Source: an uncultured Chthonomonas sp.
GTDB taxonomy: Bacteria > Armatimonadota > Chthonomonadetes > Chthonomonadales > Chthonomonadaceae
DNA: 64,000 nucleotides
Assembly: GCA_903919615.1 (NCBI GenBank)
Contig: CAIXIX010000136.1
Span: 1 to 64,000 of the forward strand
Direction of reading: 5' to 3'
The position numbers and the translations under genes were made by a program. The notes beneath the pieces were generated by a model. It saw only the letters and a program-made list of their open reading frames with translations. It made no database searches and was not told where the DNA came from. Positions within the stretch are counted from its first letter, which is position 1, and each line of letters begins with the position of its first letter. Below are positions 12,511 through 21,612 of this stretch, one piece after another.

Positions 12511-12969
12511 ATGACAGAAGTCATATTACCGACTGAGCAGGAGAGCTTGTTAGCTCGCCAATCGGGTGAGCAACTCGCTGCGCTTGTGCTCAGGGAGGCC
12601 AACGCGGATATTTATCTTCATAGTGCTGCCGATAGGGAGGAAACTCTTGCCTTACCCAAGCCTGTGGTGAGTATCCTCCTCGGAGCCCTTAAGTCGATGG
12701 CAGACGGGAACGGCGTGACAATCACACCGGTTACCAAGGAGTTTACAACGCAGAAGGCTGCGGACTTCCTCATGGTCTCGCGACCATTCCTTATCGCTGA
12801 GTTGCTAGACAAAGGCAAGATTCCGTACCGTCAGGTGGGTAATAGGCGTCGCATTCGCTATGCGGACTTGCTGCGTTATCGACAGGAAGAAGAACAGGAG
12901 ATAGCTCGGCGTAGTCAGGTAATGCTCGAACTGATGGAGGAAACAGAAAACCCGGGACTCTACAAGTGA
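12511..12969 (+). CDS. antitoxin with excisionase-type helix-turn-helix
   Basis: This 152-residue protein has an HTH_17/excisionase-like domain at ~85-130: TTQKAADFLMVSRPFLIAELL, then IPYRQVGNRRRIRYADLLRY. This is the DNA-binding layout of antitoxins that pair with PIN-domain toxins. Its stop codon overlaps the GTG start of the following PIN ORF by four bases, a typical coupled toxin-antitoxin arrangement. The antitoxin reading frame appears intact while the toxin frame is broken. The family assignment is by motif and context. Confidence 0.82.
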   Translation: MTEVILPTEQESLLARQSGEQLAALVLREANADIYLHSAADREETLALPKPVVSILLGALKSMADGNGVTITPVTKEFTTQKAADFLMVSRPFLIAELLDKGKIPYRQVGNRRRIRYADLLRYRQEEEQEIARRSQVMLELMEETENPGLYK

Positions 12970-13525
12970 TTGCCGTTCTGGACGCCTGTGTAATCTACCC
13001 GTCCGCCCTCAGGGATATTTTGATGTGGCTGGCGGTGGTAGGCGTCTACGAACCGCGCTGGACGGATGATATACACGCCGAGTGGATGCGCAATGTACTC
13101 AAGGATAATCCCGAAATGGACTTGAGCGATTGGAGCGAACACGCCGACTCATGGACAAGGTCAACTCTAGCTGCCTTGTAATCGGCTACGAAGAATATAT
13201 TCCGGACCTGCAACTTCCAGACGAAAACGACAGACATGTGTTGGCGGCCGCAATATTGGCGGGAGCAACCGTAATCGTCACGTTCAACCTGTCGGATTTT
13301 CCCCGGTCCGCGTTGAAACCGTTCAGTATTCGTGCGTTCCCACCGGACGCTTTTCTAGAGGCTCTCTTACGTGAGAATCCTGTCCGTTTTCTTCGTGGGA
13401 TTAAGCTGCATCGCTCCTCCATGAATAATCCGCCGATGTCGCAAGATCAGTACCTGCAATCGCTCGCTTCCCAGAAATTGAACAAAACCGCTGAACGTCT
13501 TTCAATACACAAAGCCGTAATCTGA
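12966..13525 (+). pseudogene. frameshifted PIN-domain toxin (VapC-like ribonuclease)
   Basis: The first frame (12966-13181) begins IAVLDACVIYPSALRDILMW with the PIN aspartate at the fourth codon, and stays PIN-like to about 13125. The second frame (from ~13130) continues with LERTRRLMDK and DENDRHVLAAAILAGATVIVTFNLSDFP, the acidic core of the same domain. The frames join if one base is restored near 13125-13130 (…TTGAGC/GATTGG…). PIN toxins cleave RNA using clustered Asp/Glu residues. As sequenced, only truncated products can form, so the toxin is probably inactive; a sequencing error or recoding cannot be excluded. The tail after ~13400 is unusually long. Confidence 0.8.
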
Positions 13526-13857: not shown

Positions 13858-16800
13858 TTACTGATTCGACCATATTCTCACGATTCCATCCCGTCCTCCT
13901 GCAGCAATGTGCTGTCCGTCTGGTGACCAGGCGACGGCGTACACCTCATGCGGACATTGGAGCAGAAGCGTCTCGTGACCCGTATTCGTATCCCAAATGC
14001 GAACAGTACCGTCATGGCTGCCAGAGAGTATCCTCCTGCCATCCGGCGAGATCGCTACCGCATGAACATTGTCGGTGTGTCCCTGCAGAAACGGCTGCTC
14101 GCGGCCGTTTCTTGCATCGAATACCCTGATGGTATTGTCCTGACATCCACACGCTACTTTGCTGCCATCAGGCGTAGCAGCAACAGACCAAAGCCATTGT
14201 GGACATGTAGCTGACCACTTGCAGTATCCATTGCTGATGTTGGTAATATCCATCGCGCCTTTGGCCTCAAGATCCGGTCCGGCTGTAACGAGTTGGCTGC
14301 CATCCGTCAAAAACGCGAGAGACATAACACGAACAGCCCGACCTCGAATTGTTCGCGACATCTTCCAGTCGGCACTGTCCCAGATCCTGGCAGCGCCATC
14401 GTGATGACCGGTTGCGACGCTGCGGCCATCTGGTGACCACGCCACCGAATCGACACGCCCCCCGCGACCATGTAGCGTGTTGAGCGCAAGGCCGCTATAG
14501 GCATCCCACACGATTGCCGTGGCATCGTTGCTGCCTGTGAGGATTTTCTTGCCGTCAGGCGAGAACGCTGCGGCATAGACATCGCTTGTATGCCCGGCAA
14601 GCTCGAACAGCTTGCTCCCGGTTGCAACATCCCAAACGCGAGCAACGGAATCTGCACCGCCAGTTACAATACGCTTCCCGTCCGGCGAGAACCCAAGCCC
14701 GATCACGAATTCCCTTTGAGCGTGAAACGAAACCAGGCGCCTTTCATTGCGAGCTGACCATACTTTAACGAAACTCTCATCGCCAAGCGTAACTACGTGG
14801 CCCCCATCCGGGAAAAAGGCCGCGAAATTCGCCGGCGGATCGATACGCAGCGTTACGAGGTCGTCGCCAGACACGGCATCCCAGATCGTAGTAGAACCAT
14901 CCTTACACGCAGTAATCAGATGGCTGCCATCCTTACTGAATGCAACGACTTCGGGCGAGCTCTTGTGCGCAATGAGCCTGGTTGTTCGCCCTGTATCTGC
15001 ATCCAGAATCCGCAGATTCACCCCGAAACCCCATGTCGCCAGTCGCCTCCCGTCCGGGGAAAGAGCCACCCGACCAAAGTCGGTATCGTTTGCCGGCCAC
15101 GAGTGCTCGACCTTCCAGTGTGCAAGCGCGATTGTGCGGGCAATTCCATCATGACCAAGCACGATCATATGTCTACCGTCGTTAGATACGTAGCCGTGAT
15201 CGTCGGGAGCTAAACCACTTCGCAGCAAATCCAGTCCAGTCTTTGAGTCACGTATTCGGACATTCCGATAGAAGTAATCCGACGATACTATAAGCAAACC
15301 GTCGTCAGAATACCGTAATACCTGTATCGGACTCCCGGTCGCGCGAATTGCAAGAACCTGCCTTCCTGTTGCGACATCCCACACCCAGATACCGCCGTTT
15401 GCGCCTCCCGCCGCAATACGGTCACCGTCCGGCGAATACGCTGTAGTGATTACAGAGTCGCTTTCCAGCTCGCCCAGCGATCTGACTATTGAACCGGACA
15501 TCGCGTCGCACAATTCTACGCCGTGTTTGCCAGGCAGGGCCAGTCGCAGCCCATCGGGTGAGATGCCCACAGATAACACGGCCTGATATAGCGGAATTCT
15601 GGCGACTTCCAGGTTACACAGGTGATGCCAATATCCCCACTCCCAGCCCCGATTCTCGTTCTTAGAGGTTTCCTCTAAAAGCTGCTTTAGATGGGCCAGG
15701 TGACCCGCCTGCCAATCGCGCGGAGCCGCAGCCATATTCGCATAATAGAGTTGCCGTTGTGCATTTACGGTCTGCTCCAAAGTGCGTGCTGCCTCCTTTC
15801 TGAGCAGCGACGCGTTTCGGTCGGCCTGGCCCTTTAGCTTCATCGCAACAATTGCCAGGGCGCAGATTACCAGCGATACAGTAGCGTAAAATGCTGTTGC
15901 TCGGGCTATTCCCTTGCGGTATGCTTCCCTTTGCCGGCGAATCTCGGCATCCGGTAGGTTCTCACGCACCCAGACACGATCAAAAACCCTGGCATATATT
16001 CGATTACGAACATATAGCCGTCCGCTTTCGACACGAACAACTCCGGCGAGCCTCAATTCCGTAACCAGCGAAATCGTTACTGGGTCACCGACATTTCTTC
16101 CCTGCAATACCTTAGAGTAAAGGCCGAGAAGTGCTGCGAGATCCCTGGCGCCTCGAGTCAACCGGTTACCAACAAATGCAAGATTGTCGTCATTGTGTCG
16201 GGCCTCCGGCGCAAAGAACAGCTGCTCGCAGATTTGGTCAATCGCTGAAGCTGTCTTTGTTTGGCTCTCCGGAATCTCTGCTACTGCACGGCACAGTCGC
16301 TGCGTCAAGTAGGGGTGGCCGTTCGTCCAGAAAAAAATACGATCATAAAGCTCCATGGCATTCGATCTGCTAGACGCATGGAGACCGTCGGCAAGATGCG
16401 ATGCCTCCTGCCTAGTAAAGTCGTTCAGCTCTATGCGAGTTCCTATATTAAAAGGCGTTGTCTGTGAGTCGCTTATCAGGTCAGCGGGAGACGCTACGCC
16501 CAGCAGACAAAACGTCCATCGTGCATATTCAGGATCCAGTGCTCGCCGGTTGTAACATTCGCGGATGCCTGCAAAGAATTCATCGGTGGGAAAGCTGAGC
16601 GATCGTACATTGTCGATTTCATCAATAAAGAACACTAACTGGCCCAACACGCTTCCGAGCACGATCTCGCGCATTGCCATCTGCCAACGCTGAAACGGTG
16701 CAACCTGTTCTCGATGCTCGCGCCAGAAATCCCTTAGCGGAGCTGTGAGACTGAGCTGACTTCCGATTTCAAGCAGCATGCCGTAGTACCACTGCTCGGA

Positions 16801-17067
16801 CGTAGCTGGCAACCCAATATGCGTCAGATCGAGGTCCACGACCGCTACGCCTGCTTCACGCAACCGATCCGCCGTCCGCACCTTCAAGCTGGACTTGCCT
16901 AGTTGCCGCGTGTTAAGCACGTAACAGAAATCGCCGCATGTAAGTGACGCGAATAACTCCTCGTCGGCACCGCGTTTTACGTAACAGCCACTGTCGGTCG
17001 GCAGCGTGCCTCCGGATACGAAGAAGCGTTTAGGCCTCGGTGATGTTTCTGGTTTCGTGCCCGGCAT
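13858..17067 (-). CDS. AAA-like ATPase with transmembrane segment and 14 WD40 blades
   Basis: This 1069-residue protein has an N-terminal AAA_35-type P-loop domain (~1-350): Walker A-like NTRQLGKSSL (~52-61) and Walker B LVFFIDEID (~150). One transmembrane helix follows (~395-415, ATVSLVICALAIVAM). A WD40 region (~490-1069) has about 14 repeats recognisable by SPDG…IW/VWD motifs, enough for two seven-bladed propellers. The layout resembles STAND-type signalling ATPases, with an NTPase switch tethered to a ligand-binding propeller. Its start lies two bases after the stop of the BTAD-AAA gene, indicating coupled expression. The physiological role is unknown. Confidence 0.88.
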   Translation of the reverse strand: MPGTKPETSPRPKRFFVSGGTLPTDSGCYVKRGADEELFASLTCGDFCYVLNTRQLGKSSLKVRTADRLREAGVAVVDLDLTHIGLPATSEQWYYGMLLEIGSQLSLTAPLRDFWREHREQVAPFQRWQMAMREIVLGSVLGQLVFFIDEIDNVRSLSFPTDEFFAGIRECYNRRALDPEYARWTFCLLGVASPADLISDSQTTPFNIGTRIELNDFTRQEASHLADGLHASSRSNAMELYDRIFFWTNGHPYLTQRLCRAVAEIPESQTKTASAIDQICEQLFFAPEARHNDDNLAFVGNRLTRGARDLAALLGLYSKVLQGRNVGDPVTISLVTELRLAGVVRVESGRLYVRNRIYARVFDRVWVRENLPDAEIRRQREAYRKGIARATAFYATVSLVICALAIVAMKLKGQADRNASLLRKEAARTLEQTVNAQRQLYYANMAAAPRDWQAGHLAHLKQLLEETSKNENRGWEWGYWHHLCNLEVARIPLYQAVLSVGISPDGLRLALPGKHGVELCDAMSGSIVRSLGELESDSVITTAYSPDGDRIAAGGANGGIWVWDVATGRQVLAIRATGSPIQVLRYSDDGLLIVSSDYFYRNVRIRDSKTGLDLLRSGLAPDDHGYVSNDGRHMIVLGHDGIARTIALAHWKVEHSWPANDTDFGRVALSPDGRRLATWGFGVNLRILDADTGRTTRLIAHKSSPEVVAFSKDGSHLITACKDGSTTIWDAVSGDDLVTLRIDPPANFAAFFPDGGHVVTLGDESFVKVWSARNERRLVSFHAQREFVIGLGFSPDGKRIVTGGADSVARVWDVATGSKLFELAGHTSDVYAAAFSPDGKKILTGSNDATAIVWDAYSGLALNTLHGRGGRVDSVAWSPDGRSVATGHHDGAARIWDSADWKMSRTIRGRAVRVMSLAFLTDGSQLVTAGPDLEAKGAMDITNISNGYCKWSATCPQWLWSVAATPDGSKVACGCQDNTIRVFDARNGREQPFLQGHTDNVHAVAISPDGRRILSGSHDGTVRIWDTNTGHETLLLQCPHEVYAVAWSPDGQHIAAGGRDGIVRIWSNQ

Positions 17068-17069
17068 AC

Positions 17070-18938
17070 TTAATTCAGTTCTCTCTCTAGATAGGCTTTA
17101 TAGAGCCGGCACCGAATTTGTGCTACGCCACGAGGCGCTCCGAACACAATTCCTGCGCTCCTGAGACGATAGAAGCTTTCGGAGGTCAGGCTGCGCCCGT
17201 CACGCAGAATGCTTCGGGCCTCACTTATGAGGCGGGTATCCTGTTGCAACGATTGCAGCATCCGGATAAGATGGTCGCCGAGTATCCCATCGCTGCAGCT
17301 GTAGCCTAGCTCCAGATCCGCTATTCTTGCACCGCGCTCAACTACTTCATATAAAATGCGCCTCGTGAGGTAAGGCTGACCGCCAACCAGTTCGTACAGT
17401 TGCATCAATTCCGAATCACTGCGTAGTGGCGAGCCATACCTAATGTTAAGTTCCCGAACTTCATCTAGCGTGAAATCCTGCAAGACAAGCCTCGTACCGA
17501 CATTGAAAGGCGACTGATTGAGATCCGATATAAAGAGATGTGCTTCCGTCGCATAGGCAATTGCAACCGTCAATTTAGACCAGGGGCCGGTTGCGTCCAG
17601 TGCTCTTCGGTTATGCCACGACCGTATCAAACCAAAGATTTCACTGCCGAATGGGCATTGGAATAACCGGTCGACCTCGTCCAATCCCCATACTAAATGC
17701 CGGTCTGCATTGCGAAGAACCTGGTCTCTCATATAGTAGTCTAGATTGAGGCTCGCCCCAAGTCCCGAGTCCCAGGTTTTAGTAGGTGGCGCGGGTATAT
17801 CGAGTTCAAGGTACAGCGTATTCGCAAGTGCTAAGCACAGACTATCAACGTCAGAGAGATGGACCCGATTGAGTGCTTGAAGATCCAGGAGCGCCACACT
17901 GCTTCCGGATTCCCTGGCTTGTCGTAGTCCGCGAGCCAAGAGCGAAGTTTTGCCGACCTGGCGGGCGCCTTTCACGAGGACGATACTATCACGATAATTA
18001 ATTGCTTGATGGAACTCCCCGTCAACATTTCGTTCAATATAGAACGCGGAGTCAACGGGTACGGCGCCGCCTATCGGTTCAGATCGAAGTGGCGCAGTTT
18101 CCAATGGCCGACGCTGCCGCGAGACGCCGGGGGCTGCTTGGATGTTCGATAAACGAGGCGCTGGTTGGCTAGGAGGTCGGTTGGCGCGCTCTTCCGCACG
18201 AAGCGAGTGAAAAAGCACAGTGGTTTCTAGAGAAGGCTCCGCATTGATTTCGCGGTGCAGCATAACCCTCAAATCCCGGTAAACCGCAATTGCCGCGGCA
18301 GTGTCGCCGCAATCAGAATACGCGCACATCAGGTTGCGGTGTGTTGATTCGCGCATTGGGTTGGCTTCCGCCAATCTGCACAGACACGCAATCGCACCGT
18401 TTCGGTTTCCATCTACTGCGTATTGAGCAGCCAGCGAATCCAGCGCTTCCTCATACTGCTTTTCTCGAATAAGCCGCTCCTGATAGACCCACCCGTCCGA
18501 ACAGTCTTCCATAAGTGGGCTGGTGTACAGATCGACGGCGCGCTGCAGGGCTTCGCGATTACCACATTTGATCTCGCGATCAAATGCACATACATCTATG
18601 TCGACACCGGACGTGTTAAGCCGCAATGCATGTCCGGGCAACACAGCGAGACTTGCGCCACATTCGCCGAGAGCGCTGCGCAGCTCACTCAGGTTTTGCC
18701 TCAGGTAGGCGAGGGCCTGGCTCTCGATGCTATCCGGCCAGAGCATGCCGGCAAGCCAATTGCGCGCTACGCTGCGATCCGCTCGGAGGGCAAGCAAGGC
18801 GAGCAGGTCAAGCGTTTTTCGGGATCGGAGGCGTGGTAGTGGGATTCCGCCAACGTACACCGCCATCGGGCCGAACATCCGGATAACAAACATACTGTGG
18901 CTGACGGCGGGCGGTTCGGTCAACGAGGAATCTCCCAT
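17070..18938 (-). CDS. BTAD/SARP-type regulator fused to an AAA-like ATPase
   Basis: The N-terminus is a winged-helix OmpR-like DNA-binding domain (MFVIRMFGPMAVYVGGIPLP…, RSRKTLDLLALLAL). A bacterial transcriptional activator domain follows to ~residue 240 (YRDLRVMLHREINAEPSLET). The C-terminal half is a P-loop domain paralogous to that of the next gene, with Walker A KGARQVGKTSLLARG and Walker B LVWGLDEVDRL. It also shares the FNVGTRLVLQDFT motif with the neighbour's PFNIGTRIELNDFT. The start is uncertain: I use ATG 18938; GTG 19037 and ATG 18893 are alternatives, none with a good ribosome binding site. The gene is divergent from the PEP-CTERM genes and forms an operon with the AAA-WD40 gene. 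Confidence 0.85.
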   Translation of the reverse strand: MGDSSLTEPPAVSHSMFVIRMFGPMAVYVGGIPLPRLRSRKTLDLLALLALRADRSVARNWLAGMLWPDSIESQALAYLRQNLSELRSALGECGASLAVLPGHALRLNTSGVDIDVCAFDREIKCGNREALQRAVDLYTSPLMEDCSDGWVYQERLIREKQYEEALDSLAAQYAVDGNRNGAIACLCRLAEANPMRESTHRNLMCAYSDCGDTAAAIAVYRDLRVMLHREINAEPSLETTVLFHSLRAEERANRPPSQPAPRLSNIQAAPGVSRQRRPLETAPLRSEPIGGAVPVDSAFYIERNVDGEFHQAINYRDSIVLVKGARQVGKTSLLARGLRQARESGSSVALLDLQALNRVHLSDVDSLCLALANTLYLELDIPAPPTKTWDSGLGASLNLDYYMRDQVLRNADRHLVWGLDEVDRLFQCPFGSEIFGLIRSWHNRRALDATGPWSKLTVAIAYATEAHLFISDLNQSPFNVGTRLVLQDFTLDEVRELNIRYGSPLRSDSELMQLYELVGGQPYLTRRILYEVVERGARIADLELGYSCSDGILGDHLIRMLQSLQQDTRLISEARSILRDGRSLTSESFYRLRSAGIVFGAPRGVAQIRCRLYKAYLERELN

Positions 18939-18975
18939 TTCACGACAATGGTTGCACCATTCGCACACCACATAC

Positions 18976-19036
18976 GAATCTCCTTCGCTTTCACATACAT
19001 TCCAACATATGCTTGCCGTGTAAGATGTCGATGTCA
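18976..19036. promoter_or_regulatory. shared upstream element, copy A
   Basis: TCCTTCGCTTTC, then a gap, then ACATATGC and a GTGTAAGATGTC-like block, recurs in the same order at 20820-20880. Copy A lies between the BTAD gene and the first PEP-CTERM gene, copy B before the third. Conservation in two intergenic regions suggests a promoter or operator. The GTG start at 19037 of the longer BTAD ORF would fall inside this region. Confidence 0.45.
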
Positions 19037-19166
19037 CAATCGAACGCGGTACACATGGATAACTTGGTAACGCGATGTTCCTACAGTGGTGCTACTCCTC
19101 GTACAACGGCGAGCGGCTTGTGTTCGAACAAACTCGGCGGAAATCGACTTTCAAAGGAGCAATCAA

Positions 19167-19862
19167 ATGCTGTACGGAAATAGAATTAAGATGGCGCTGG
19201 CAGTGATCGGTTGCATCACATTTTCGATCAATTTCGCCGCGGCCCAGACGTTCGATGCGTCGGCCGATTTTGACGTTGCACATAACCCCAGTCAGATCAA
19301 CGGCGGTGCTTTTCGATACGGCTACGAAACGGCGCCAGGCAGCACCTTCAATCTCTTCCTGACACCTTACAACAACTCAGGTAAGCTCCTGGGATGGACG
19401 ACTGGGAGCGGCGTTCCTATCGCGGCGAAGAATATCAGCGGCAGCACGTTCTATGTGCAGCCAGGCGATGTCCTGTTACATCCGGACAGCTCGGGCGACT
19501 ACAGCGTAGTGCGCTTTGTGGCACCCAGCAGCGGCACGTACACACTCTCCTCTTCGTTCGATGGTGGGCCATCTGGTGCAACGACCGACGTGCATGTGCT
19601 ATTGAACAGCGTTGCGCTCTTTAACGGCAATGTCTCCGGCAATGTTGTTTCCTACTCCAACTCCCATCTGGCGCTGTCCGGAGGTGATGAAGTCGATTTT
19701 GCCGTGGGGTATGGCATTGATGGCAGCTACCTCTCCGACTCCACCGGCCTCCTGGCGACGCTGACCGACGTCTCGCCGGCAACACCGGAACCCAACGCTC
19801 TTATTGGCTTGAGTGGACTCTGTGCAGCCTTTGGGTTGACCCGGGCTCGCCATAAACGGTAG
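19167..19862 (+). CDS. PEP-CTERM exported protein
   Basis: This 231-residue secreted protein begins with a signal peptide (residues ~1-28, ending NFAAAQ). It ends with the PEP-CTERM sorting signal: TPEPN, a hydrophobic stretch (ALIGLSGLCAAFGL) and a basic tail (TRARHKR). Exosortase-type systems cleave at this motif and deliver such proteins to the outer surface or extracellular matrix. The middle is a beta-rich, Gly/Ser/Asn-rich region lacking enzyme motifs. The ATG at 19167 has AAAGGAGC upstream; the ORF-track start 81 bases earlier lacks support. No exosortase gene is in this window. Confidence 0.87.
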   Translation: MLYGNRIKMALAVIGCITFSINFAAAQTFDASADFDVAHNPSQINGGAFRYGYETAPGSTFNLFLTPYNNSGKLLGWTTGSGVPIAAKNISGSTFYVQPGDVLLHPDSSGDYSVVRFVAPSSGTYTLSSSFDGGPSGATTDVHVLLNSVALFNGNVSGNVVSYSNSHLALSGGDEVDFAVGYGIDGSYLSDSTGLLATLTDVSPATPEPNALIGLSGLCAAFGLTRARHKR

Positions 19863-19971: not shown

Positions 19972-20802
19972 ATGAGATACCGTATTCCTTCATGCTCCAT
20001 GCATTTAGCCGGACTACTATTCGTGCTGATTCCAGTGGCTCCTTCCGGTGCGCAAACCATCTGGGTTTCTGATTATGCTACAGGCGACGTAGGTACTTTC
20101 GATCGTACTTTAGGCACGGTAACCAAGACGTCCTTGCTTGGGACCGCCATGACAGACATCGCTTTCAATCCCGTAAACCGCATTTTCTACGGTATCGGTT
20201 ATAACGACAACCTGTATACATTCGATCCAACCTCTGGTGCTACAACATTGATCGGCAATGACGGCGGAGTCTTTTTGGCCGGATTAGGTTTTCGAAATGA
20301 TGGATTGCTGGTTGGCGGCACCGGGAACGACCTGTACACAATAAACATAACTACCGGAGCTGCAACACATGTACAGAGCTTGAGTGGATCGGGCCAGGGA
20401 GCCGATCTTGTCTTCGATAGTTCCAACAATCTGTATCTCACCACTGCTGACGCGCACATATATAAGTTCACTGACTTTCTGGGCAGCAGCGCGTATGCAG
20501 ATCTAGGCAGTACCGGTCTGCCCGATGGCGGCGTCGCATTAGCTTACAATGGCAGTCAGTTGTACGTCTTTGATAACGGCACGAGCCAATTTTCGGTATT
20601 CAACCCGATTTCGAGTGCGCATACCGTGTTTTCGTATTCCGGCAACCTGGGAAGTATCGTAGGTGGCGCTACCTTTGAGCCGGCCATTTCTGGCGTTCCC
20701 GAACCGGGGGCATTAGCGATTCTTCCCGGCTTGGGAGTAGCATCACTCTTCACCGTACGCAGAATACGACGGCGCGCGCAGCCGAACGAGCAGCTGGGAT
20801 GA
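19972..20802 (+). CDS. PEP-CTERM exported protein, probable beta-propeller
   Basis: This 276-residue protein has a signal peptide ending around SGAQ (residue ~28) and a C-terminal VPEPGALAILPGLGVASLF followed by an Arg-rich tail, the PEP-CTERM sorting signal. The central region has repeated blocks of the type LYTFDPTSGATTLIG and LYTINITTGAATHV, spaced ~45 residues apart, resembling YVTN/NHL-like propeller blades. It is likely a surface or matrix protein rather than an enzyme. It is one of three adjacent genes of this class, each with its own 100-200-base leader. Confidence 0.85.
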   Translation: MRYRIPSCSMHLAGLLFVLIPVAPSGAQTIWVSDYATGDVGTFDRTLGTVTKTSLLGTAMTDIAFNPVNRIFYGIGYNDNLYTFDPTSGATTLIGNDGGVFLAGLGFRNDGLLVGGTGNDLYTINITTGAATHVQSLSGSGQGADLVFDSSNNLYLTTADAHIYKFTDFLGSSAYADLGSTGLPDGGVALAYNGSQLYVFDNGTSQFSVFNPISSAHTVFSYSGNLGSIVGGATFEPAISGVPEPGALAILPGLGVASLFTVRRIRRRAQPNEQLG

Positions 20803-20880: not shown

Positions 20881-21048
20881 ATCATGATCGAAATAGGCAA
20901 GGGGTATCGAAAGGAATTATTTCAATTGAAACAAGCAATTGCAATATCGCTTTAGAATTGTGATGTAATTCCAACAAATCCGTTCGCACGCCATTGATGT
21001 CGGTTGTCACCGCCGGCACGCGGCGTTTCATTCGAGAGGAAATCGTCG

Positions 21049-21612
21049 ATGAAAGTTCACGCAGCCATTTTATTGTGTTTTCTGGGGCCGACTCTGTGTG
21101 CTCGGACGGCAACCGCGCAGTCATACACATTTGTGGGCAGCTGGGACCTCGCAACTATAGACGGTGGCTACGGTAATTCCAGCAATCCGTATCTCTGGTT
21201 TAACAATCCGCTGTGTTATTCAGGTGTCTCTGCCGCTGCGCTTTTATTCGGCGGCAGTCCGGCCGACTATGTTACGTCGACAGTCGATAGCAATCCAGCA
21301 AACATCAACTTTGATGCATTTGTTGATGGTTACGGTTACGGTAACGATCTGTACTTGTATAGTCCAGCTCCAGACACGTTCTTTCTTCAGACGGATTCCG
21401 GCTACCAATTCGGATCTTCCTTTTCAGCTTACGTTGTTGACCACGCTCCATTCGACGGCTCAGGGTCATTTGTCAACTACGCTTTCAGAATAAATCCAAC
21501 ACCTGAACCTGGAGCATTTGCCGTTGCTGTTAGTTTAGGTATCACTGGGTTTGCTCTTATTCGCCGCAGACGCCGAAGCTTGATTCCCCAAAATTCAAAG
21601 GTCGGTCAATAA
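21049..21612 (+). CDS. PEP-CTERM exported protein
   Basis: This 187-residue protein has a signal peptide (MKVHAAILLCFLGPTLCARTATAQ) and a C-terminal TPEPGAFAVAVSLGITGFAL with the basic tail IRRRRR, a canonical PEP-CTERM signal. The mature part is aromatic- and Gly-rich (for example DGYGYGNDLYLYSP) with no recognised catalytic motif. The start ATG 21049 is preceded by GAGGAAA; the 15-residue upstream extension in the ORF track is unlikely. It is the third PEP-CTERM gene in tandem. Confidence 0.86.
   Translation: MKVHAAILLCFLGPTLCARTATAQSYTFVGSWDLATIDGGYGNSSNPYLWFNNPLCYSGVSAAALLFGGSPADYVTSTVDSNPANINFDAFVDGYGYGNDLYLYSPAPDTFFLQTDSGYQFGSSFSAYVVDHAPFDGSGSFVNYAFRINPTPEPGAFAVAVSLGITGFALIRRRRRSLIPQNSKVGQ

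What the first reader, a model, noticed from the sequence alone, without database searches (positions are those of the whole stretch)
13858..18938. Two-gene STAND-like unit: BTAD-AAA regulator and AAA-TM-WD40 protein
Both proteins carry paralogous AAA_35-type P-loop domains (KGARQVGKTSLL and NTRQLGKSSL, shared FN(V/I)GTR block). One adds a DNA-binding activator, the other a transmembrane helix and ~14 WD40 blades. The genes are two bases apart. A membrane propeller sensor passing a signal to a DNA-bound paralogous ATPase by P-loop co-assembly would be a new type of two-part system. The divergent PEP-CTERM genes are possible targets.
Basis: partly seen in the sequence, partly recalled or inferred. 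Interest (0 to 1): 0.65.

Follow-up and report, generated by a model that had tools for sequence, protein, structure and literature searches.

The report
Split sensor-effector ATPase gene pair
Two neighbouring genes encode halves of what looks like one signalling machine, a membrane sensor and a gene switch that share a related ATPase part; the same pair recurs in about ten bacterial phyla, and in this bacterium's genus the switch half probably controls genes for surface-sorted (PEP-CTERM) proteins.

Summary
Window 17070-18971(-) is a SARP-type regulator (wHTH-BTAD-AAA_35, "S"); 13858-17067(-) is AAA_35-TM-WD40 ("W"); two bases separate them. The pair is a conserved unit: all 37 testable SARP-type S genes and 81 of 93 of any type have a W within 3 kb, in about ten phyla, and S and W distances co-vary (r=0.84). 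The S effector swaps repeatedly (SARP, TIR, TIR+kinase, CHAT+TIR); W's sensor end varies too (WD40, TPR, CHASE2). W's AAA_35 is predicted cytosolic, its propeller outside. AlphaFold2 of two homologous S-W AAA_35 pairs gave pTM 0.85 across disordered linkers, so a heteromer is credible (single-chain model, no PAE, not the window pair). The PEP-CTERM idea gained support: 20 of 36 SARP genes here lie within 4.5 kb of a PEP-CTERM gene (2.3 expected), and SARP-box-like 11-bp direct repeats sit upstream of SARP-type S genes, other SARPs and PEP-CTERM genes, including unlinked ones. The window's own intergenic region has only one half-site. Best reading: a STAND/AfsR-like switch split over two proteins, coupling an envelope sensor to surface-protein transcription. 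Signal direction, ATPase activity and DNA binding are inferred, not shown.

The parts
13858..17067 (-). W gene: AAA_35-TM-coiled coil-WD40 protein, 1069 aa
16240..17010 (-). AAA_35 P-loop domain of W (residues 20-276; Walker A TRQLGKSSL, Walker B VFFIDEID)
   Evidence: PF14516, 81.5 bits; alignment
15841..15891 (-). single transmembrane helix of W (FYATVSLVICALAIVAM), basic flank on the AAA side
13861..15570 (-). WD40 propeller region of W (approximate start)
17070..18971 (-). S gene: SARP-type regulator wHTH-BTAD-AAA_35 (start GTG 18971 behind AAGGAGA, or ATG 18938)
18597..18878 (-). OmpR/SARP-type winged helix of S (approximate)
   Evidence: Trans_reg_C, weak; AfsR 8hvr/8jke, EmbR 2fez
18198..18557 (-). 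BTAD of S
   Evidence: 69.6 bits
17085..18068 (-). AAA_35 P-loop domain of S (Walker A KGARQVGKTSLL)
   Evidence: 238.5 bits; alignment
19032..19038 (+). single TGTCACA half-site in the S/PEP-CTERM intergenic region; no second repeat 11 bp away
19086..19862 (+). divergent PEP-CTERM-like gene 1 (likely start ATG 19167)
19972..20802 (+). PEP-CTERM-like gene 2 (DUF4394-like propeller)
21004..21612 (+). PEP-CTERM-like gene 3 (weak PF07589 score, motif by eye)

Best explanation
S and W are the two halves of a split STAND-type switch. W is anchored in the inner membrane with its AAA_35 domain in the cytosol and its WD40 propeller outside, and acts as sensor and platform. S carries the output, here a SARP DNA-binding and activation domain, on a paralogous AAA_35. 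A change at the propeller alters the nucleotide state or assembly of the W AAA_35, which engages the S AAA_35 and so releases or holds the SARP domain. The SARP domain binds 11-bp direct repeats and controls its own promoter and nearby PEP-CTERM (exosortase-sorted) surface protein genes. Shown by computation: conserved gene pair, swappable effector and sensor ends, topology bias, SARP/PEP-CTERM linkage, and class- and spacing-specific repeats. Predicted only: the heteromer. Inferred: direction of signalling, ATP dependence, activation versus repression, ligand.
For: Pairing: 81 of 93 testable S genes, 37 of 37 SARP-type, have W within 3 kb, 76 of 81 on the same strand; S and W distances correlate (Mantel r 0.84, and within three genomes' paralogues). 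Spread over about ten phyla. Effector swaps on the S tree: the BTAD label needs 11 changes, at least 7 forced by well-supported branches. W: 72 of 79 have a TM with a more basic N-side (+3.1 versus +1.0); CHASE2, a known extracytoplasmic sensor domain, replaces WD40 in a Nostoc W. Heteromer: fused S-W AAA_35 models, pTM 0.85, pLDDT 92 and 89, with linkers under pLDDT 50. Fold near the archaeal STAND/MNS-type ATPases 2qen and 2fna. SARP/AfsR match; SARPs bind 11-bp direct repeats (PMC10936776, PMC5930380). Repeats: GTCAC-N6-GTCAC upstream of 8 of 37 SARP-type S genes, 0 of 67 others, none of the SARP-type regions at other periods. 10 of 14 genome hits lie next to SARP and/or PEP-CTERM genes; replicated in the genus mate (4 versus 0.06 expected). 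SARP near PEP-CTERM 20 of 36 versus 2.3 expected. 11- and 12-bp repeats in 10 and 11 of 63 PEP-CTERM upstream regions versus about 1.5 by null. Exosortases present.
Against: No experiment. The pTM evidence comes from homologous pairs read through stop codons as one chain, without PAE; in A3 the lone S rows were misaligned onto the W half, though the clean repeat A5 agreed. Adjacent duplicated genes co-evolve by linkage alone. About a quarter of TIR-type S genes (10 of 42) have no W nearby, so S can work without it. PEP-CTERM adjacency was seen only in the window's genus, more weakly in the genus mate by the BTAD count (5 of 22 versus 1.3). SARPs that are not AAA_35 proteins also sit beside PEP-CTERM genes, so the link belongs to SARPs, not to the pair. 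The window's own intergenic region has only one half-site.
Confidence: 0.55

Rival explanations
1. The pair is primarily a conflict (immune or altruistic-response) module. TIR is the default effector, and the SARP version turns on a stress or defence response; PEP-CTERM neighbours are incidental or part of an envelope response to attack.
For: TIR, CHAT, trypsin-like and kinase effectors on S; multi-copy, divergent paralogues; STAND-like fold; such effectors are typical of the conflict systems of PMC7159879.
Against: No PADLOC model of a matching system: hits are only to generic kinase, TIR, CHAT or WD40 parts. SARP/PEP-CTERM linkage and shared repeats are strong in this genus. No phage match for S.
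Confidence: 0.25
2. W is a scaffold or negative regulator that holds S at the membrane; S is released by W loss or proteolysis rather than by AAA_35 co-assembly.
For: AfsR's NOD and TPR parts inhibit its SARP domain (PMC10936776); W has a TM and repeats suited to scaffolding.
Against: Walker A and B are conserved in W, which a mere anchor would not need.
Confidence: 0.15
3. Adjacency reflects tandem duplication of an AAA_35 gene and carries no functional coupling.
For: S and W are paralogous at the AAA_35 domain.
Against: Two distinct classes kept side by side over about ten phyla, with S effectors swapping around a constant W.
Confidence: 0.05

Closest known systems
AfsR/SARP regulators and the AfsK-AfsR pathway (Streptomyces)
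   Same: wHTH-BTAD head on a STAND-like ATPase; 11-bp direct-repeat operators. AfsK as membrane-associated kinase with a propeller sensor is recalled, not tested.
   Different: ATPase is AAA_35 instead of NB-ARC plus TPR, and the sensor repeats sit on a second, membrane-bound AAA_35 protein with no kinase in the window pair.
STAND NTPases (NLR-like; Avs, NACHT)
   Same: Effector-NTPase-repeat logic and fold similarity to archaeal MNS/STAND ATPases
   Different: Effector and repeats are on separate proteins, each with its own P-loop domain, and W crosses the membrane.
PrsK/PrsR regulation of PEP-CTERM genes (Haft 2006, PMC1569441)
   Same: A dedicated membrane-linked regulator for PEP-CTERM genes with a shared upstream DNA site
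   Different: Histidine kinase and sigma-54 response regulator, reported only in Proteobacteria; here SARP with 11-bp repeats.
Ternary and related NTP-dependent conflict systems (Kaur 2020, PMC7159879)
   Same: TIR, CHAT and kinase effectors, propellers and P-loop ATPases in multi-gene units
   Different: They centre on MoxR-vWA, GTPase or protease cores; a term search of the main text gave no BTAD, and AAA_35 was not found in the searched library outside a sigma-factor paper.

Membership tests
SARP/AfsR family | OmpR-type winged helix plus BTAD | tested here: met
   (winged helix weak in Pfam, supported by the AfsR match)
SARP/AfsR family | Binds 11-bp direct repeats at target promoters | tested here: inconclusive
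   Repeats present for sibling S genes and other SARPs; window has one half-site only; binding itself not testable
AfsR (large SARP) | NB-ARC/NOD plus TPR in the same chain | tested here: not met
   S has AAA_35 and ends there
STAND NTPases | P-loop NTPase of the STAND/MNS fold with conserved Walker A and B | tested here: met
STAND NTPases | Effector, NTPase and sensor repeats in one polypeptide | tested here: not met
   Split over S and W
STAND NTPases | Ligand-driven nucleotide exchange and oligomerisation | not testable with these tools
   Only a heteromer prediction
Two-component (HK-RR) systems | Histidine kinase and receiver domain | tested here: not met
   No such domains in S or W
Known anti-phage systems (PADLOC) | Match to a defined system model | tested here: not met
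PEP-CTERM/exosortase proteins (neighbours) | PEP motif, TM and basic tail at C-terminus, with exosortase in the genome | tested here: met
   window genes score below curated cut-offs

The most novel reading that the evidence does not exclude
A general class of membrane-spanning split STAND receptors: a sensor-AAA_35 protein and an effector-AAA_35 protein signal by mixed P-loop assembly, and lineages swap the output (transcription, TIR, protease, kinase) while keeping the coupling core. In Chthonomonas-like Armatimonadota the transcription version, with other SARPs, forms the control layer for PEP-CTERM surface proteins.
Probability: 0.4. Interest if true: 0.8.

Novelty: new variant of a known kind. 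Interest (0 to 1): 0.62.

Why it matters
If right, bacteria have a modular receptor in which NLR-like logic is cut in two and put across the membrane, and the same coupling core serves gene regulation and TIR-type effectors. It also gives a testable answer to how PEP-CTERM genes are controlled outside Proteobacteria, where the earlier survey found no shared regulatory site.

Tried and rejected
PADLOC match to a known defence system: none beyond generic parts. Phage origin of S: no match. Literature for AAA_35/PF14516, PEP-CTERM with SARP, PEP-CTERM with Armatimonadetes: nothing on this system; the library is open-access only. GTCAC repeats as a genome-wide enriched motif: not so, 14 hits against 10 for the reversed control; the signal is where they lie. 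A clear SARP box in the window: not found. An S-S fused control fold was abandoned, because all lone S rows aligned to one half.

Full report
What is in the window. Two genes on the minus strand, two bases apart. S (17070-18971 or 18938) has a winged helix, a BTAD and an AAA_35 domain; W (13858-17067) has an AAA_35 domain, one TM and WD40 propellers. S matches AfsR and EmbR structures over residues 22-237. Three PEP-CTERM-like genes run the other way from 19086, the only ones in the 64 kb by a motif rule.

The pair as a unit. The genome has 12 AAA_35 domains, six of each class by score. In a set of 41 genomes (this one and 40 relatives) AAA_35 occurs in 20, nearly always as S-W neighbours. A named scan added 80 loci, chosen by S alone, in Armatimonadota, Acidobacteriota, Verrucomicrobiota, Cyanobacteriota, Chloroflexota, Pseudomonadota, Thermodesulfobacteriota, Planctomycetota, Aminicenantes and KSB1. 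Counting S genes with a W within 3 kb or with clear flanks, 81 of 93 are paired: SARP-type 37 of 37, TIR-type 32 of 42, others 12 of 14. These counts include related species. Unpaired ones are largely verrucomicrobial. S and W distances correlate at r 0.84, and within the paralogues of three genomes; linkage alone could give much of this.

Swappable ends. S carries BTAD, TIR (often after a cyclase-like domain), kinase plus TIR, CHAT plus TIR, or BTAD plus kinase plus TIR. The BTAD label needs 11 changes on the S tree, at least seven forced. W carries WD40, TPR, CHASE2 plus kinase, or Roc plus TIR. So the constant part is the two AAA_35 domains. 72 of 79 W proteins have a TM, with a more basic N-side, which by the positive-inside rule puts the AAA_35 in the cytosol and the propeller outside.

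Do the AAA_35 domains meet? Window S and W are in different frames, so homologous pairs with S and W in one frame were read through the stop (as Gly) and folded as a single chain. L066 (TIR-type) gave pLDDT 91.8 and pTM 0.85 with residues 338-351 under 50. In that alignment only 8 rows covered the S half because lone S rows fell on the W half. A clean repeat on L110, an Armatimonadota SARP-type pair, with W rows only added, gave pLDDT 88.9 and pTM 0.85 with a 35-residue disordered linker. Two equal domains with undefined placement should give a pTM near 0.5 (my estimate), so a defined interface is predicted. No PAE or coordinates were available and there was no good negative control. The best single-domain PDB matches are 2qen and 2fna, archaeal ATPases; I place them with MNS/STAND from memory.

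The PEP-CTERM link. In the genus, AAA_35 loci at the window, C356, C257, C327 and G001 C20 and C98 lie beside PEP-CTERM genes. Genome-wide, 20 of 36 BTAD genes lie within 4.5 kb of a PEP-CTERM hit (2.3 expected, p 2.7e-15), nine of them divergent. Most of the BTAD genes have long open frames of AfsR-like size; the two checked that carry BTAD (L139, L146) have NACHT/NB-ARC and TPR parts, not AAA_35. So the link belongs to SARPs in general. In G001 it is weaker, 5 of 22 against 1.3.

The repeats. SARPs bind direct repeats 11 bp apart (PMC10936776, PMC5930380). GTCAC-N6-GTCAC occurs upstream of 8 of 37 SARP-type S genes and none of 67 others, and at no other period tested in SARP-type regions. 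In the own genome there are 14 hits, about chance in number, but ten lie beside SARP and/or PEP-CTERM genes, including SARP-like genes on C43, C98 and C579 and PEP-CTERM genes on C316, C472 and C206; a 13-bp period gave 3 hits. In G001 four of 16 hits lie at PEP-CTERM starts against 0.06 expected. Any exact 7-mer repeat at period 11 or 12 occurs in 10 and 11 of 63 PEP-CTERM upstream regions against about 1.5 in a Markov null, with a shared TGTAACGATTCATGTAACG at the C327 and C467 genes. The motif was noticed before it was counted, so these figures are partly post hoc; the G001 count is the independent check. The window's own region has one TGTCACA at 19032 and no repeat.

Mechanism and place. 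The best account is a split STAND switch: W senses at the envelope, its AAA_35 engages the S AAA_35, and the SARP head acts on promoters of PEP-CTERM genes and of S. AfsR gives the nearest precedent: its NOD and TPR parts inhibit the SARP head and ATP relieves this (PMC10936776). In Proteobacteria PEP-CTERM genes are tied to PrsK/PrsR and sigma-54 sites, and those sites were reported only there (PMC1569441). The TIR-type pairs may serve conflict functions; no PADLOC system matches. I found no description of the pair in the open-access library searched.

Noticed in passing
L015 249-3740 (own genome contig C601): The W-like partner of this TIR-type S lacks the N-terminal part of AAA_35; it begins near the contig start, so it may be truncated or frameshifted.
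   Followed up: partly
window 12511-13525 (+): An HTH_17/excisionase-like gene followed by a PIN-like small ORF, tail-to-tail with W; resembles a toxin-antitoxin pair.
   Followed up: no
own genome contigs C43, C98, C579, C316, C472 (L139, L140, L147, L145, L146): AfsR-like or SARP-like genes that are not AAA_35 proteins carry the same 11-bp repeats upstream, or lie beside a repeat and a PEP-CTERM gene: a likely wider SARP regulon.
   Followed up: partly
L160 (own genome C269:7400-9800): Four or so tandem copies of AGCGCACAT at 11-12 bp spacing upstream of a PEP-CTERM gene.
   Followed up: no
L018 9720-9743 and L151: Identical TGTAACGATTCATGTAACG upstream of the PEP-CTERM gene beside a solo W and of an unlinked PEP-CTERM gene.
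   Followed up: no
L116 1684-5106 (Chloroflexota): One S protein carries BTAD, protein kinase, TIR and AAA_35 together.
   Followed up: no
L132 4951-8193 (Nostoc): W with AAA_35, CHASE2 and a protein kinase; supports a sensor role for W.
   Followed up: no
L063 1041-3878 (Verrucomicrobia): Two S-class AAA_35 genes in tandem and no W.
   Followed up: partly
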